Below the pieces are notes generated by a model. The model was not told the origin of the DNA. It saw only the letters and a program-made list of their open reading frames with translations, and searched no databases. 64,000 nucleotides of DNA from Gossypium raimondii (Eukaryota; Streptophyta; Magnoliopsida; Malvales; Malvaceae). The stretch covers positions 42,055,924 through 42,119,923 of the forward strand of contig NC_068570.1 of NCBI RefSeq assembly GCF_025698545.1, written 5' to 3'. Shown here one piece after another: positions 27,651 to 39,975 of this stretch (positions are counted from its first letter, which is position 1; every line of letters starts with the position of its first letter). Both the position numbers and the translations under genes were made by a program.

Positions 27651-31841
<4,191 letters not shown>

Positions 31842-32215: not shown

Positions 32216-32224
32216 TAAAAAGGA

Positions 32225-32424
32225 GGGGAATTTACCACAAAAAGCCATTTTTTTCAAAATTTAACGAAATGGGCCGATTTTTTGATTATTTATCGGAATG
32301 GTCCATTTTACGGGAAATCGCGCCCACGTCAGCGCGATGTCAAGGTACATGGCAGGACATCGCGTCCACGTCAGTGCGACCTCCTGACGTGGAAGGAAAT
32401 CGCGCCCTCAAGGACGCGATGTCC
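32225..32424. repeat. Left terminal inverted repeat of the MULE
   Basis: About 200 bp matching the reverse complement of 39770-39966. The outer 90 bp are AT-rich; the inner part carries repeated ATCGCG(T/C)CCACGTCAG motifs rich in CG and ACGT cores, unusual against the AT-rich surroundings. Confidence 0.88.
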
Positions 32425-32445
32425 TCCGCGCATGAACAGTACCCC

Positions 32446-32504
32446 AACGGTCAAAAATTTGACCGTTGCCCCCCCCAACGGTCAAAATATATATATATAT
32501 AAAT
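32446..32504 (+). promoter_or_regulatory. Likely PMD gene promoter: hairpin plus TATA box
   Basis: AACGGTCAAA and TTTGACCGTT form a 10-bp inverted repeat with a 2-bp loop (32446-32467). A third copy of AACGGTCAAA follows at 32477, then TATATAAATA at about 32495-32504. This is a compact arrangement just inside the TIR and 210 bp before the PMD start codon. The same AACGG...hairpin logic recurs, degraded, before the second PMD copy near 47850-47950. A promoter role is inferred. Confidence 0.5.
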
Positions 32505-32716
32505 ACCCCCACCCCTTTATTTTTTTTCACAAACAAATCCTATCTAATTTTTCCTCTCTAATCTTCTCAATTTCCTTCTAAAATTCTCTCAAACCCATAT
32601 TTAATTTTAATTTCCTCTCAATTTCCTTCCAACATTCTCTCAAATCTATTTTTTAAAATAATTATAAATTTTTTTATTTTTTTAAAATAATTTTAAATTT
32701 TTTTATATTTTCATCA

Positions 32717-34696
32717 ATGGCCGGATCATTGATTCGTCTTGATAGCAATCACATATCGGTGGAGCAAATGAAAATGGTAAGTATTAAATTTAATTTGTAA
32801 TTATTATTTAAGATTTTTTTATTTAAGTATTTTTAGATAATTATTAATTTATTGTTTGTTATAAAAGTCTGAAGATCGGGTATTGGAATGCCATATTCGG
32901 AATATGCATGCTCCTCCATCACCGTTAGTAGAGAACTACCTGCAGGAAGCGGGTTTTTGGCACGTGGCGATGGTAGGCCAAGGATGCAAGTTGGACCCGA
33001 AACTGATTAGTGCGTTGATCGAGAGGTGGAGACCCGAGACGTACACATTTCATCTTCCATGTGGAGAGTGCACTATCACTCTAGAAGATGTCAACATGCA
33101 GTTGGGATTGCCGGTGGACGGGCACCCAATCACCGGGTTTGCCCAATCTAGCAATTGGGAGGCGGTGTGCTACGAGCTTTTGGGCGCTATTCCGGAAAAA
33201 ATGGATGGAAGTAAGGTCGAGATGGGCTGGTTACGTTCCACTTTCCCCGATCCGAATGCAAATTCAACCGAAATCCAAAGAATCCGATATGCTCGATCAT
33301 ACATTCTTCAAATAATTGGAGGTTATCTGATGCCGGACACGTCACGGAGCCGTGTACATCTAAGGTGGCTGCTAAAACTCATTGATTTTAGAAGAGCAGG
33401 TGAATTTAGTTGGGGGTCTGCCGTCTTGGCAACATTATATCAGGAGATGTGCGGGGCGACGCGACCGAGGAGAGCAACCATCGGAGGTTGCCTGTCACTA
33501 CTGCAATTATGGGCACGGTTTCGCCAAGTTATCGTGGATTACCGTCTGAACTTGAAGATATACGACTTCTATTGGACCAACGGTCAGAAGCAGAAGTAAG
33601 TATTATTGCAAATAGATATTTCCATACATTCGCTAGTCGATTGATATTTAGTATTTAGTATTTAGTATTATGTATATAACTAATATTTCTATCATGTTCA
33701 TATAGTTTCAATGGACACCATACGAGGATCCGACAATTCGGGCAGTAATCCCGGAAGAGTTTTTACAAAATTCGAACGCTTGGCACGTTAAAGTGGTGTT
33801 GATCAACTATGCAACCGTGGAGCCCCACCAGACAAACAGAGTGCTATGACAGTTTGGATGTAGACAACCGATTCCTGCGGACCCTGAGGAGTTTGACGAG
33901 CACCACAAAATTGACCTTCGACTATTAGGTACGGATTGGCTTAGATATTGGTCCGAGTACACGGAAATGTGGGAAAATCAGCATGAATATCTACCTACTC
34001 GGGAAGAAATCATCGTTCCGGAGTTAGCGTGCGTTCCAGAATACATGCCATGGTTTAGGATCCATGGCAAGCCATATTTACTTACGCCAGATGAGAGGCA
34101 ACGGTAATTATGTCTCGGAAGGGAAAGGCGCGGGCCTCTAAATCCAAGACGAGAAGACTTCGAATGCAGCCCCTCAACGAGGCCTAGACAGTCACCCGGC
34201 GCATCATCAGCGGGCATGCAATCACCGGCCCCAACGAGAGCACCGACGCAATCACGTGACGCAGCAATTCAACAGATGATACCCACGCAACTGCCTTTCC
34301 CTATGATGCCAGGTATGTTTCCTAGCCCTTATATGTACCCTAACCCTTACATGTATCCTTTTAGAATACTATGGCAGTTGGAGCCAAATGCGGTTCACTC
34401 CATTTCTGTTATGCCGAAGCGGACGATCGATATCTAGGCTGGCAGCAGGAGGGATCGCACATGCCTTCGGGGAGCTCTCCTTTTTACCAATATCCAGCAA
34501 CGTATGGCTTTCAAACACCGTCGTCGTTCATGATGCAAACACCTCCACATACCGACAACCAGATGCCGAACCGGAAGAACCACAATCACCACCGGAGGAA
34601 GAACAACCGCCGCTGGAAGCTAGAAGAAGGAGGAATCCAGCGCGCAACCGTCGACGGCCGCCATGTGGAACCGAATCCTCCGGGCATAGACATTGA
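32717..34696 (+). pseudogene. Plant mobile domain (PMD) gene, disrupted
   Basis: Exon 1 at 32717-32776 (MAGSLIRLDSNHISVEQMKM) ends at GTAAGT. Exon 2 starts about 32868 and carries the PMD core: ENYLQEAGFWHVA, then LIERWRPETYTFHLPCGECT, LQLGLPVDGHPI-type sequence (here MQLGLPVDG), and LLQLWARFR. Near 33515-33535 the frame is lost and sequence expected between WARFR and SYRGLPSELEDIRLLLDQ is missing. Exon 3 starts about 33706 (FQWTPYEDPTIRAVIPEEF), has a TGA at about 33847, then resumes to DYMPWFR-like PEYMPWFRIHGKPYLL and shifts frame at about 34107. The tail is Pro/Met-rich (MYPNPYMYPF) and ends RNPARNRRR...GHRH. PMD proteins, related to MAIN/MAIL1, help silence or express genes in the nucleus; databases often mislabel them 'phosphatase 7 long form'. 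This copy is not functional. Confidence 0.87.
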
Positions 34697-34805
34697 TTGC
34701 CGTATTTAAATTTATTATTTAATGTAATAAAATAGAAGTTTATTTGATGGAATACGCATAGAAATTTTTGAAGAAAATTTTGATATTATTTGATATAATA
34801 AAATA

Positions 34806-35808
34806 AAAACCCTAATTTAATTGAAAACACTAACCTAACCTAACCTAACTTAATTAAAAACCCTAACCCTAACCTAAATTAATTAAAAACCCTAACCCTA
34901 ACCTAAATTATTTAAAAACCCTAACCCTAACCTAACCTAACCTAAATAAAAACCCTAACCCTAACCTAACTTAACCTTAAACCCTAGCCCTAACCTAACT
35001 TAATTAAAAACCCTAATCCTAACCTAACTTAATTAAAAACCCTAACCTAACCTAAATTAATTAAAAATCGTAACCCTAACCTAAATTAATTAAAAACCGT
35101 AACCCTAACCTAAATTAATTAAAAACCCTAACCCTAACCTAAATTAATTAAAAACCCTAACCCTAACCCTAACCTAATTTAATTAAACACCCTAACCCTA
35201 ACCTAACTTAATTAAAAACCCTAACCCTAACCTAAATTAACTAAAAACCCTAACCCTAACCTAAATTAATTAAAAACCCTAACCCTAACCTAACTTAATT
35301 AAAAACCCTAACCCTAACCCTAACATAAATTAATTAAAAACCCTAACCCTAACCTAACCTAACTAAAAACCCTAACCCTAACCTAACTTAATTAAAAACC
35401 CTAACCCTAACCCTAACCTAACTTAATTAAAAACCCTAACCCTAACCTAACCTAACTAAAAACCCTAACCCTAACCTAAATTAATTAAAAACCCTAACCC
35501 TAACCTAACTTAATTAAAAACCCTAACCCTAACCTAACTTAATTAAAAACCCTAACCCTAACCTAAATTAATTAAAAACCCTAACCCTAACCTAACCTAA
35601 CTAAAACCCTAACCCTAACCTAACTTAATTAAAAACCCTAACCCTAACCCTAACCTAAATTAACTAAAAACCCTAACCCTAACCTAAATTAACTAAAAAC
35701 CCTAACCCTAACCTAAACTAATTAAAAACCCTAACCCTAACCTAAATTAATTAAAAACCCTAACCCTAACCTAAATTAACTAAAAACCCTAACCCTAACC
35801 TAACTTAA
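34806..35808. repeat. Telomere-like minisatellite, about 29-bp unit
   Basis: About 33 tandem units of consensus AAAAACCCTAACCCTAACC followed by TAAATTAATT, near 29 bp. Variants swap TTAATT for TTAACT or TAACTAA, or gain an extra CCCTAA. Each unit has two CCCTAA blocks and an AAACCCTAA telo-box. The hexamer CCCTAA differs from the normal plant telomere heptamer CCCTAAA, and the AT spacer is absent from telomeres, so this is an interstitial array within the MULE and not a chromosome end. It lies between the convergent PMD and transposase genes. Confidence 0.93.
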
Positions 35809-36150
35809 TTTGATAAATTTTACTAACCATTAACACAATTTTGGACTTAATAATTTTAGTTTATTTCATAAATTTTACTAACCATTAATACAATTTTTGG
35901 CTTAATAATTTTACATATTTTGATAATTTTACTAACCATTAACACAATTTCTAGACTTAATAATTTTAGTTTATTTCATAAATTTTCTAACCATTAATAC
36001 AATTTTTGGCTTAATAATTTTACATATTTTGATAATTTTACTAACCATTAACACAATTTTTGGACTTAATAATTTTAGTTTATTTGATAAAATTTACTAA
36101 CCATTAACATAATTTTTTGGCTTAATAATTTTACATAATTTTACATAATG
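35809..36150. repeat. Tandem repeat, about 55-bp unit in alternating pairs
   Basis: Six copies of a unit containing TTTTACTAACCATTAA and CTTAATAATTTTA. Odd copies end TAGTTTATTT and even copies end TACATATTTT, so the true period is about 110 bp (a two-unit higher-order repeat). It directly follows the telomere-like array and precedes the transposase 3' end. Confidence 0.88.
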
Positions 36151-36282
36151 TTAGATTTGGTAAAATGTTTTGACTGGTACTAAAAATTTGACAAGAAATT
36201 AAACTAATTTGATAATTTTACTAAAATTAAAACAATTATCAATTAATAATTGAAGAAAATATATTTTTTTCTAAAATTACAT

Positions 36283-39161
36283 TCAGCTATTGCGATTAGG
36301 GCATGATCGACTTGTACGGCCTGGGTTCCTACACCATCCGCACAACTTTTGTTGACTGGATGTTTCTCAGATATCCATATTGTTCCGTATTCTAGTGGAG
36401 CAAGGTCGACCCTTTGGTTTCTTGACGCAATTCTCTATCCGTAATGACTTAAAAGGAGCAAGAGATACGGGCGGCCACTTACGTTCATCTGGGACCGGTG
36501 GGAAAACGTGTCTCCATATGTTGTACATGTTTTCTAGTTTGTAGACTTTGTCCACATAACTCATCGGATCCAGACGGAGTTTCTGACAAGCTGCAATAAC
36601 ATGAGCACATGGATAACGAAGTGCATCAAACTTCCCACAGTCACAAGTCCTGTTTCGCAAGTGTACACGATACTGCCCGCCAATAACACCTTGGTGCGGT
36701 CTGTCAAACTCCGTCACGCGAAACCATAAATTGTCTCGATCGTGACACACTGTGTGCATGATGTTTGCCCTCGCCTTCGCCTTGTTAATTTCTTGAACTA
36801 CCTTACTGCACCATACATGTCCACCCTGCATCTGGCCAGCATAAGCTGCTGCTCACTTTGGAAATAGCGCCGCCAAACGGAAATATATCTCTCGCACAAC
36901 CGATGTTATCGATAGATGGCGCATTCCTTTAAGAATAGAATTTATGCATTCAGCCAGGTTCGACGTCATATGGCCATATCGTAGGCCTCCGTCGTATGCT
37001 TGTGTCCACTGTTCGAAACATATGTTACAAAGGTAGTCCGCCCCTTCTCCGTTTTGGGATCGTAAAATTGCCAACATCTCCTGAAAAAGATATTTATTTA
37101 TTTCATACTCTGCCAATATAAGATAATTGTGAATATTTTATACCACTTCTACCAATAAAACTAATTCAAATTGACAAACGAAATAATACAGTTATAAACT
37201 AAATACCCATGTTGGTCACTTATCGTCGTTCGATCTTGGACGGATATTGCCTGTAGTAGTTCGAAGCAACGTGTCTTAGGCAATATCTATGGTGTGTGCG
37301 CTGCCACAAGCTTCCCTCTCGATCAAATGCAGCTAGTATACCGACGCCCCGATCTGAAATAACACAGATATCAAGTTGGGGGCAGACATGCCTCCTTAAC
37401 CTAGAGAGAAAGAAATCCCAGTCATCAGATGGCTCCCCCGGTGTTATTGCAAATGCAATTGGAAGAATTCTCCCACTACCGTCCTGTGCCACTGCAACCA
37501 ATAGCCGATGAGTATACCTACCGAACATGAAGGTATCGTCAATTTGTACCAACGGCTTGCGGTATGGAAATGTGTCTCGGCATTGCTTAAAGGTCCAAAA
37601 TAGGCGTTTGAACACTTGGCATCCACGTAGCAATCGGCTGTTGTAGTACGCATGTTCCGTTTCAAGGTCTGTGATGGCACCTGGGACGTATCTCTCTAGC
37701 ACCTGACACCACTGCCATATTTCATTATATGAGGCGTCCCACCCACTATGCATCTTCTCCAACGCCTTTTGCTTAGCTATCCAAGCCTTGCGGTAAGAGG
37801 GCGTGTACCCTATTTGGCTACGGATATTGGCAATTATCACCGGCACTGAAGTCTTGGGATCTGCTTTTATCGTGGGCATTATCAAGCTGGCTAACATAGC
37901 TGAATCCATTTTGAGATGATCTTGTGAAACACCTACAGAGGGAGTACATTAAATAATGCAACATTGCAAAATAAAATTATTATTCAAATACATTCAATAT
38001 TGTACCTGCAGTACATGTATGTAGACCTTTGTACTTTTTTATCTCCCACAACCCTATCATTTTCCTTAACGAGGCGACGATTTTCCATGAACATGTGTCG
38101 TCTTGCACCGCACACTTCGCCTCAAACTTATCAGATTTTGGTTTAACGACGTGGTAATTAACGCCATTTTTGATGCTATGCTGTTTCAAAGCACCAATAA
38201 AACTATCCTTGTTGGTAAACTGTTTACCAACTTCAAGTTCACCGAAATCTACCCCCGAACTTGTACGATCGCGCAACCGGTATGGTAGATCTGGAAACTT
38301 TAACGCATCATCTGCTGACAGATCGACATTATGCATGTGGGCTGGAGGTGAGTTTGCTCTGAATCGTGGATTTACTTCATCATCTGAACTCCTTTCAGCA
38401 TCTTCACCTTCTGTTAAAATAGGCTCCGGTTTAGAAAATAATCCCACTTCTGCACCATCCGGCCTGGGCTCTCGAGGTGGATCCACATCGGAGTCATCTT
38501 CTAACCCACAATCATTTGCAGCGTACGACGTTCCCTCACCGGTTGACATCGTAGGTAGTACGTCATCCCTTCTTCTGGGCATTTGATAACGTCCCCAATT
38601 GGATGTAGATTGCCATCCACTAGAACTTGACGCAGTTCCCCAGTACGTATTTCCAGCATCAAACGTCAAGCCACCGACGTACATGTCCCATCCACCAATA
38701 GAGTGTCTTGCGGGGGATGTGCGTTCGACACCTCTACCGAACATGGGCTGTTCCGTATTTTGTAACCCGCTAACCGAGTGTCGGCCAGGGGTCGTGTATA
38801 CATCTCGAACACCGGACGGAAGTACATCAGTTGGCGACTTAAATTGTACATATAACTCAATATAAGTTGCTCCACTAGCAAGATGAGTCTGCACCATTGC
38901 CTTCAAGCTACGAGCACATTTTATGTCGAACGAGTCATATGTCACCAGATCAACACAAGAACAAAATCGATACGTGATTGACAGAACTTTCATTGGCGTC
39001 ATTCTGAAGATTTTACGCCTAATTCTTTTACGAAGTTCTGTCAAATCTATGTTCTGGTTAAATGACAGTCGCACCGTATTCTCCGACAAAAAAACAACAC
39101 CATTCTCGGTGTGGCAAACCTCACCATCGTAGTAAATAACAAAGACTAATCGTTCACTCAT
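36283..39161 (-). pseudogene. MuDR-type MULE transposase with three nonsense codons
   Basis: Three exons: 38006-39161, 37207-37932, 36283-37109, with GT/AG introns of 73 and 97 bp. The N-terminal 390 residues start MSERLVFVIYYDGEV, include an acidic middle (LEDDSDVDPP) and the MuDR DNA-binding region (VGKQFTNKDSF...HTCTAG). The DDE core follows: VQIDDTFMFGRYTHRLL, CVISDRGVGI and MTSNLAECINS hold the D, D and E. A SWIM zinc finger (CDCGKFDALRYPCAH) and a C-terminal zinc knuckle (CGWCRNPGRTSRSC, whose usual His is Arg) end the protein. In-frame stops lie at 37220-37222 (expected CAA to TAA), 36853-36855 and 36367-36369 (both CGA to TGA). Otherwise the frame is open, so inactivation is fairly recent. 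Transposases of this class cut and join at 9-bp targets and bind the TIRs. Confidence 0.92.
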
Positions 39162-39268
39162 TTTGAAATTCTAACTTTCTTAGCCTCTCTAAATTTTTTC
39201 TCGCTATGACTTATGCATTCTAAGAACATTTTCGCCTAATTTATAGCCTCGGCACAAACTTGTTATCA

Positions 39269-39620
39269 GAGCAAAATCGCGTCCACGGTAGCGATTTCAC
39301 AATTCTTCTCAAATAGCATCTGGTAGAAGCGATTTTATACTATTTGCTCAGAAACGTCAACAAAAAAATTATTTCTTACATGACCTACTGTAGCAAAATC
39401 GCGTCCACGAGGGCGCGATTTCACAATTTCTTCTCAAATAGCATTCTCGTAGAAACGATTTTATACTATTTGCTCGAAACATCGAAAAAAATTATTTCTT
39501 ACATGACTAATCGTAGCAAAATCGCGCCCACGGTAGCGATTTCACAATTCTTCTCAAATAGCATCCGGTAGAAGCGATTTTATACTATTTGACCAGAAAC
39601 GTCAACTCGAAATAATTTAT
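39269..39620. repeat. Tandem repeat, about 123-bp unit, upstream of the transposase
   Basis: Three copies of a unit running AGCAAAATCGCGTCCACG...GCGATTTCACAATT...TCTCAAATAGCAT...GATTTTATACTATTTG...ATTATTTCTTACATGAC. Each carries the ATCGCG(T/C)CCACG motif also found in the TIRs. Its position 100-450 bp upstream of the transposase start suggests transposase-binding or promoter repeats; that role is inference. Confidence 0.85.
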
Positions 39621-39769
39621 TCCAGAACATTTTCTGCCTAAAAAACCTGACCCTAAACCCTAAAAGCCAAAAAAACCAAACGTGAAAAATACGTCAAAAT
39701 CGCGTCCCCAAGAATGCGCTACGTGGCGGACATCAGCGTCACGTCGGTAGCGACTGTTGACGTGGAAGG

Positions 39770-39966
39770 AAATCGCTCCCTCAAGGACGCGATTTCCTTC
39801 CACGTCGGCAGGTCGCCGACGTGGACGCGATGTCCTGCCATGTACCCTGACATCGCGCTAACGTGGGCGCGATTTCCCGAAAAATGGACCATTCCGAGAA
39901 ATAATCAAAAAATCGGTCCATTTCAGTAAATTTTAAAAAAAAAGGACTTTTTCTGGTAAATTGCCC
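39770..39966. repeat. Right terminal inverted repeat of the MULE
   Basis: Reverse complement of 32225-32424 with scattered mismatches. Its inner side continues into extra ACGTCGG/ATCGC motifs (39700-39770), one pair of which (GGAAATCGC...GCGATTTCC at 39767-39800) forms a further local hairpin. Confidence 0.88.
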
Positions 39967-39975
39967 TAAAAAGGA

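What the first reader, a model, noticed from the sequence alone, without database searches (positions are those of the whole stretch)
32225..39966. Complete MULE carrying both a plant-mobile-domain gene and its own transposase
Perfect 9-bp TSD and about 200-bp TIRs enclose a PMD gene and a MuDR-type transposase in convergent orientation. PMD genes are known to associate with MULEs, and silencing functions of host PMD proteins (MAIN/MAIL1) are established. A mobile PMD next to a transposase suggests the element may have used it to counter or exploit host silencing; that role is inference.
Basis: partly seen in the sequence, partly recalled or inferred. Interest (0 to 1): 0.75.

Follow-up and report, generated by a model that had tools for sequence, protein, structure and literature searches.

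The report
Dead cotton transposon with two genes
This is an inactivated copy of a large family of cotton jumping genes that carry both a cutting enzyme and a second protein related to plant gene-silencing factors; that layout was already known, but its copies give some evidence that the second gene mattered to the element.

Summary
32225-39966 is a Mutator-like element in Gossypium raimondii with a perfect 9-bp TSD, about 215-bp TIRs (87%), and convergent PMD and MuDR-type transposase genes. Both genes are broken in this copy.

PMD is a family part, not a passenger. Of 25 other TIR-selected loci, 20 carry both genes, 1 carries PMD plus a transposase remnant, and 4 are 1.0-1.1-kb copies with neither. 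Two truncated top-150 lists give 41 PMD/transposase pairs within 12 kb, all 41 convergent; 0.7 expected by chance. A close relative of this PMD is only 31-34% identical to host MAIL2/MAIN-type proteins.

Constraint on PMD is weak and the tests are mixed: shared stops are depleted and conserved sites spared, but overall N/S is not significant. Transposase is clearly constrained.

Antisense PMD in MuDR-group MULEs, including a G. raimondii element, is in print (PMC6446971), and so is the anti-silencing idea (PMC5418596). The most original observation is a one-stranded telo-box minisatellite between the genes. A silencing role remains untested.

The parts
32216..32224 (.). left target site duplication TAAAAAGGA
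   Evidence: identical to 39967-39975
32225..32440 (+). left TIR (begins GGGGAATTTACC)
   Evidence: 87% inverted match to 39753-39966
32717..32776 (+). PMD exon 1 (starts ATGGCCGGATC; intron bounds inferred from GT/AG)
   Evidence: read from sequence; the same opening MAGSLIRLDSNH is read in copy L023
32868..33524 (+). PMD exon 2, open but cut off at its 3' end by a deletion
   Evidence: PF10536 E=2.5e-48; 148-bp deletion versus L012
33525..33595 (+). remnant of PMD exon 3
   Evidence: alignment to exon 3 of L009, cover 0.85
33706..34696 (+). PMD exon 4 with proline-rich tail; stops at 33847 and 34105; 3' limit inferred from the tail read in L012
34834..35810 (+). telo-box minisatellite (29-bp unit, about 33 copies; AAACCCTAA on the PMD strand only)
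35808..36133 (.). 55-bp AT-rich tandem repeat
36286..37092 (-). transposase 3' exon (SWIM; the C-terminal cysteine cluster looks like a zinc knuckle, label recalled); stops at 36855-36853 and 36369-36367
37220..37909 (-). transposase catalytic exon (MULE domain)
   Evidence: PF10551 E=1.2e-11
37980..39161 (-). transposase 5' exon (DBD_Tnp_Mut)
   Evidence: PF03108 E=6e-9
39270..39604 (.). 123-bp subterminal tandem repeat with AATCGCG motifs also found in the TIRs
39753..39966 (-). right TIR
39967..39975 (.). right target site duplication

Best explanation
The window holds a dead copy of a large MuDR-type MULE family of Gossypium raimondii. Active members encoded a transposase that acts on the TIRs, and a separate convergent PMD protein that is a standing part of the element. 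Shown: anatomy, pairing of the two genes across copies, loss of function in this copy, past selection on transposase and, more weakly, on PMD. Inferred: that the transposase acts on these TIRs, and what PMD did. I think most likely a nuclear accessory that helped the element be expressed or escape silencing, by imitating or titrating host MAIN/MAIL-type complexes (about 0.35); a direct helper role in transposition about 0.25; the rest open. The confidence below is for PMD being a standing, once-used part of the element.
For: TSD, TIRs and domains. Both genes in 20 of 25 loci, plus 1 with a transposase remnant. 41 of 41 pairs within 12 kb convergent, 2.1-6.4 kb apart, 0.7 expected. Two loci picked by divergent PMD (L034, L035) also carry convergent transposase. 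PMD and transposase distances covary, r=0.87, 21 copies. Transposase N/S falls from 2.59 (private) to 1.41 (shared by 3 or more), p=0.001; PMD stops fall from 35 of 407 private to 4 of 246 shared variants, p=1e-4. At PMD codons identical in three outside proteins, nonsynonymous changes are 133 of 303 private and 27 of 113 shared, p=2e-4; synonymous control p=0.88.
Against: Overall PMD N/S does not differ between private and shared variants (1.86 vs 1.75, p=0.73; 2.37 vs 1.68, p=0.11, 19 copies). The conserved-site test weakens at shared>=4 (p=0.02-0.08) and with only two outside proteins (p=0.036-0.65), and shows nothing at host-conserved sites (p=0.58). The same test gives no signal for transposase (p=0.71-1). 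dN/dS slopes are low in the true frame, but one antisense frame comes close. No expression, methylation or binding data. The host DOWN motif has no exact match in the element.
Confidence: 0.75

Rival explanations
1. PMD is a passenger: a host gene fragment picked up by the MULE (transduplication, Pack-MULE style) and never of use to the element.
For: MULEs capture host sequence (PMC13317346 passages); overall PMD N/S is not significantly below the private class.
Against: PMD is in 21 of 21 non-miniature TIR-selected loci. Relative P0001 is only 31-34% identical to host MAIL2/MAIN-type proteins and lies in a separate clade with Hibiscus proteins. Shared stops are depleted.
Confidence: 0.15
2. 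PMD assists transposition or target choice directly (a helper like the second gene of MuDR, recalled) and has nothing to do with silencing. This is a role within the best explanation, not against it.
For: Pairing with the transposase and covariation of the two genes.
Against: No direct evidence. Host PMD proteins act in silencing and gene expression (passages of PMC5418596; PMC7156037; PMC9899485).
Confidence: 0.25
3. The PMD gene and transposase are neighbours by chance or by nested insertion.
For: The genome gives thousands of candidate PMD places (5310 in the first look).
Against: 41 pairs against 0.7 expected, all in one orientation and a narrow range of spacing; one TSD and one TIR pair around both genes.
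Confidence: 0.01

Closest known systems
MUDR group (group 50) of plant MULEs in PMC6446971, Table 1
   Same: 9-10-bp TSD, TIR 30-320 bp, SWIM, 'PMD in antisense for most of them'; the text lists a G. raimondii element in the group.
   Different: I did not place this transposase on their tree. The paper's text does not spell out PMD ('plant mobile' 0 times); I take it as plant mobile domain. No telo-box array in the passages I read.
PMD-carrying MULEs of grasses and Amborella (PMC5418596)
   Same: MULE plus PMD, with an anti-silencing role already suggested.
   Different: There PMD-C is described as fused to the transposase; here it is a separate convergent gene, and none of 26 listed transposase relatives shows PF10536.
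VANDAL elements with VANC anti-silencing proteins (PMC5735166, PMC10398659)
   Same: MULEs with an extra gene and fast-changing tandem repeats of a short motif in non-coding DNA (passages).
   Different: Long TIRs here; the extra gene is PMD; no binding or demethylation shown.
Host MAIL2/MAIN (PMD-C) proteins
   Same: PMD domain PF10536; relative P0001 is 31-34% identical.
   Different: Separate clade with 100/100 support; proline-rich tail in the MULE copies.

Membership tests
Mutator-like element (MULE) | about 9-bp TSD | tested here: met
   9 of 9 identical in the window. Of 20 other loci (ends allowed to shift by 12): perfect 9-10 bp in 10 (L011-L013, L017-L019, L021, L023, L025, L026), one mismatch in 3 (L014, L016, L028), none found in 5, not testable in 2
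Mutator-like element (MULE) | long TIRs | tested here: met
   about 215 bp, 87%
Mutator-like element (MULE) | MULE/MuDR transposase domains | tested here: met
   PF10551, PF03108, PF04434
MUDR group 50 of PMC6446971 | PMD gene antisense to transposase | tested here: met
   window and 41 of 41 pairs, the window's own included
MUDR group 50 of PMC6446971 | transposase falls in that clade | not tested
   their alignment was not available to me
PMD protein (PF10536) | Pfam score above gathering cutoff | tested here: met
   165.5 bits vs 34.9 for the exon-2 frame; a 46-residue piece of exon 4 scores 19.6, below it
PMD-C clade | groups with MAIL2/MAIN rather than PMD-A/B | tested here: inconclusive
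   the tree has no PMD-A or PMD-B rows
Pack-MULE | captured host fragment and no transposase (definition recalled) | tested here: not met
   transposase present in the window and in 20 of 25 loci, remnant in 1
VANDAL/VANC anti-silencing system | short motif in non-coding tandem repeats | tested here: met
   telo-box array; analogy only
VANDAL/VANC anti-silencing system | VANC-type protein | not tested
   no VANC profile was run
VANDAL/VANC anti-silencing system | loss of methylation when the extra protein is expressed | not testable with these tools
   needs plants

The most novel reading that the evidence does not exclude
The family runs a VANC-like anti-silencing system built from other parts: the PMD protein, alone or with host telo-box-binding TRB proteins, acts on the element's own telo-box minisatellite, which keeps its AAACCCTAA core while unit length changes between subfamilies.
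Probability: 0.08. Interest if true: 0.8.

Novelty: new member of a known kind. Interest (0 to 1): 0.35.

Why it matters
PMD genes sit on both sides of the host-transposon conflict, and what a transposon-borne PMD does is an open question in print (PMC5418596 passage). This family offers many copies, evidence that PMD is a standing component, and a candidate cis target (the telo-box array), so the question becomes testable. It also suggests that some cotton gene models named 'serine/threonine-protein phosphatase 7 long form homolog' (7 of 120 rows shown bear that name) are MULE-type PMD genes: the two so named that I scanned, P0001 and P0084 (the latter from Hibiscus), have PF10536 and no phosphatase domain. 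I did not locate them inside elements.

Tried and rejected
Recent capture from host MAIL2: unlikely, 31% identity. Chance adjacency: rejected. Host DOWN motif CATGCAGTTT as a target: no exact match in the 26 stretches; one-mismatch matches in 9 of 26; in the window element the single one lies in PMD exon 2; window total 6 vs 5.3 expected. AlphaFold model of PMD relative P0001: mean pLDDT 55.6, not used, no fold search made. Cotton repeat papers PMC6264596 and PMC6944119: a text search for Mutator, MULE, terminal inverted and mobile domain found 0. Checking transposase hits without a listed PMD neighbour for a missed PMD: planned on 6 of 109, never answered. Whole-genome PF10536 search (first asked) and a right-TIR search: not completed. 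The transposase search of the first half ran on an empty set (file not read) and was redone.

The first form of the conserved-site test (p=6e-8) was dropped because the class depended on the family's own majority residue; one search replaces it, and repeats it on a fresh alignment (p=6e-4). Wrong-frame control: the true frame has the lowest dN/dS in both genes, but antisense +1 comes close (slopes PMD 0.48 vs 0.40, transposase 0.30 vs 0.19), so slopes alone are weak evidence.

Full report
WHAT IS THERE. The window lies in genome G000 at C6:42055924-42119923 (750.8 Mb). The host is Gossypium raimondii: proteins so labelled (P0001; P0056 and P0103) sit on contigs of 63,188,200 and 61,935,901 bases, the lengths of C11 and C10. 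The element spans 32225-39966, with TSD TAAAAAGGA on both sides and TIRs of about 215 bp at 87%. PMD is on the + strand, the MuDR-type transposase on the - strand. The copy is dead: PMD lacks 148 bp relative to L012, across the end of exon 2, intron 2 and the start of exon 3, and has stops at 33847 and 34105; the transposase frame has two stops. Exon bounds are read from GT/AG and from other copies.

FAMILY. A 256-bp left-end query gave 2019 first-look candidates, 40 scored, 58 match rows. Leaving out the window's two ends and counting one element hit at both ends once, 37 other elements remain; I fetched the 25 best-scoring (20, 5). Of 25: 20 have PMD (cover above 0.25; lowest 0.45) and transposase (cover above 0.1; lowest 0.16) on opposite strands; 1 (L019) has PMD and a transposase remnant (cover 0.08); 4 (L022, L028, L031, L032) are 1.0-1.1-kb elements with neither. 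The 4 are 85-92% alike; at E<=1e-3 they match the window element in TIRs and subterminal motifs only. In one search, perfect 9-10-bp TSDs were found in 10 of the 20 loci, one-mismatch TSDs in 3, none in 5, and 2 lacked an end. The sample was chosen by similarity to the PMD-side end, so these are not unbiased frequencies.

PAIRING GENOME-WIDE. PMD exon 2: 150 scored of 5310 candidates. Transposase core: 150 scored of 3513. Within 12 kb I find 41 pairs (the window's included), all 41 convergent, median 3.8 kb, range 2.1-6.4; chance expectation 0.7. 109 entries of each list have no partner in the other; as both lists are truncated, this neither shows nor excludes missing partners. Two of those 109 transposase hits, in L016 and L021, do have PMD. 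A test of six others did not complete. Two loci chosen for divergent PMD, L034 and L035, carry convergent transposase; only one TIR end of each was clearly matched by the query.

SELECTION. All 19 rows have at least one stop or frameshift. I compared variants private to one copy (mostly after insertion) with variants shared by three or more (while copies were active). With 25 copies, private variants of the 7 divergent copies and variants in exactly two copies were set aside: transposase N/S 2.59 private, 1.41 shared, p=0.001; PMD 1.86 and 1.75, p=0.73. Stops: PMD 35 of 407 private, 4 of 246 shared, p=1e-4; transposase 32 of 517 and 6 of 189, p=0.13. With 19 copies: PMD N/S 2.37 and 1.68, p=0.11; transposase 2.31 and 1.29, p=0.003; stops PMD 35 of 486 and 1 of 135, p=0.003; transposase 42 of 734 and 3 of 136, p=0.09 (p). 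At PMD codons identical in three outside proteins (P0031, P0065, P0084), nonsynonymous changes are 133 of 303 private and 27 of 113 shared, p=2e-4; synonymous 67 of 157 and 30 of 68, p=0.88. On a fresh alignment p=6e-4, with four outside proteins p=3e-4, at shared>=4 p=0.02-0.08, with two outside proteins p=0.036-0.65. At codons conserved in host MAIL2/MAIN, p=0.58. The same test on transposase with soybean and G. arboreum proteins shows nothing (p=0.71-1). dN against dS slopes are 0.40 (0.27-0.48) for PMD and 0.19 (0.12-0.23) for transposase; the frame control is. My reading: PMD was kept open and its conserved sites guarded, under weaker constraint than transposase. This is moderate and mixed evidence.

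ORIGIN OF PMD. All 118 named rows among the 120 shown (of 996 relatives) are from Gossypium or Hibiscus. I call these MULE-type by similarity; whether they lie in MULEs was not tested. P0001 (73% identical to the L012 query) is 31% identical to P0205 of G. davidsonii and 34% to P0121 of Noccaea, which are 51% identical to each other. P0205 is MAIL2-type by its place beside proteins named MAIN-LIKE 2; P0121 is called MAIN-type because it is 91% identical to a bait recalled from memory. A 23-row tree separates the MULE-type clade from MAIL2/MAIN with 100/100 support; without PMD-A or PMD-B it cannot say which PMD class was the source. The transposase has 26 relatives within the tool's length limits (cotton, soybean, Arachis, one unnamed), none listed with PF10536.

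TELO-BOX ARRAY. Between the genes lies a minisatellite of telomere-like units. AAACCCTAA occurs 344 times on the PMD strand and 0 times on the other in the 29 stretches (25 loci, the window element, L034, L035 and a cut second element L013b). Of the 25 stretches that hold coding genes, 20 have five or more; L021, L023, L029 and L035 (shortened elements) and L013b (cut by the end of the stretch) have 0-4; the four 1.1-kb elements have none. Unit length differs (21-22 in L034, 23 in L024, 27-29 in most others, 48 among others in L027) while the core stays. The remaining 56 kb of the window have 4 and 6. This resembles VANC target arrays, described as tandem repeats that vary between related elements (PMC5735166 passages). 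Host TRB proteins bind telo-boxes (PMC10167121, PMC13132431, abstracts in the listing). Any function of the array here is inference.

LITERATURE. PMC6446971 (passages, and part 1 of section 6): MUDR group 50 has 9-10-bp TSD, TIR 30-320 bp, SWIM, 'PMD in antisense for most of them', and includes a G. raimondii element. PMC5418596 (passages): PMD first described in a rice MULE; PMD-C fused to MULE transposase in grasses and Amborella; anti-silencing use proposed. PMC8616336 (passages) repeats the proposal. So neither the architecture nor the idea is new. For a telo-box array in MULEs I made two searches: four terms, 1 paper, an unrelated fungus; 79 papers with three of five terms, 12 listed, titles and abstract starts only, none on this; that is a thin search.

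VERDICT. Ordinary in kind, well supported as anatomy, with moderate and mixed evidence for a past function of PMD and one unexplained feature worth a test.

Noticed in passing
34834-35810: Telo-box minisatellite on one strand only, recurring in 20 of 25 coding stretches with changing unit length.
   Followed up: partly
39270-39604: 123-bp subterminal tandem repeat holding AATCGCG motifs that also occur in both TIRs; all 9 AATCGCG of the window are inside the element. Possible transposase binding sites.
   Followed up: partly
31551-31841: C-terminal part of a Ras/Rab-type GTPase gene (PF00071) ends about 375 bp left of the element.
   Followed up: no
L022, L028, L031, L032: A 1.0-1.1-kb non-autonomous family with the same TIRs and, in L022, L031 and L032, long inverted ends of 322-337 bp at 91-93% (L028: 75%).
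   Followed up: partly
P0001, P0027, P0056, P0077, P0084, P0103, P0104: MULE-type PMD proteins carry the name 'serine/threonine-protein phosphatase 7 long form homolog'; of these P0001 and P0084 were scanned and show only PF10536.
   Followed up: partly
996 annotated PMD relatives against 26 transposase relatives, perhaps because gene annotation masks transposases but not PMD genes; the search's length limits also play a part.
   Followed up: no
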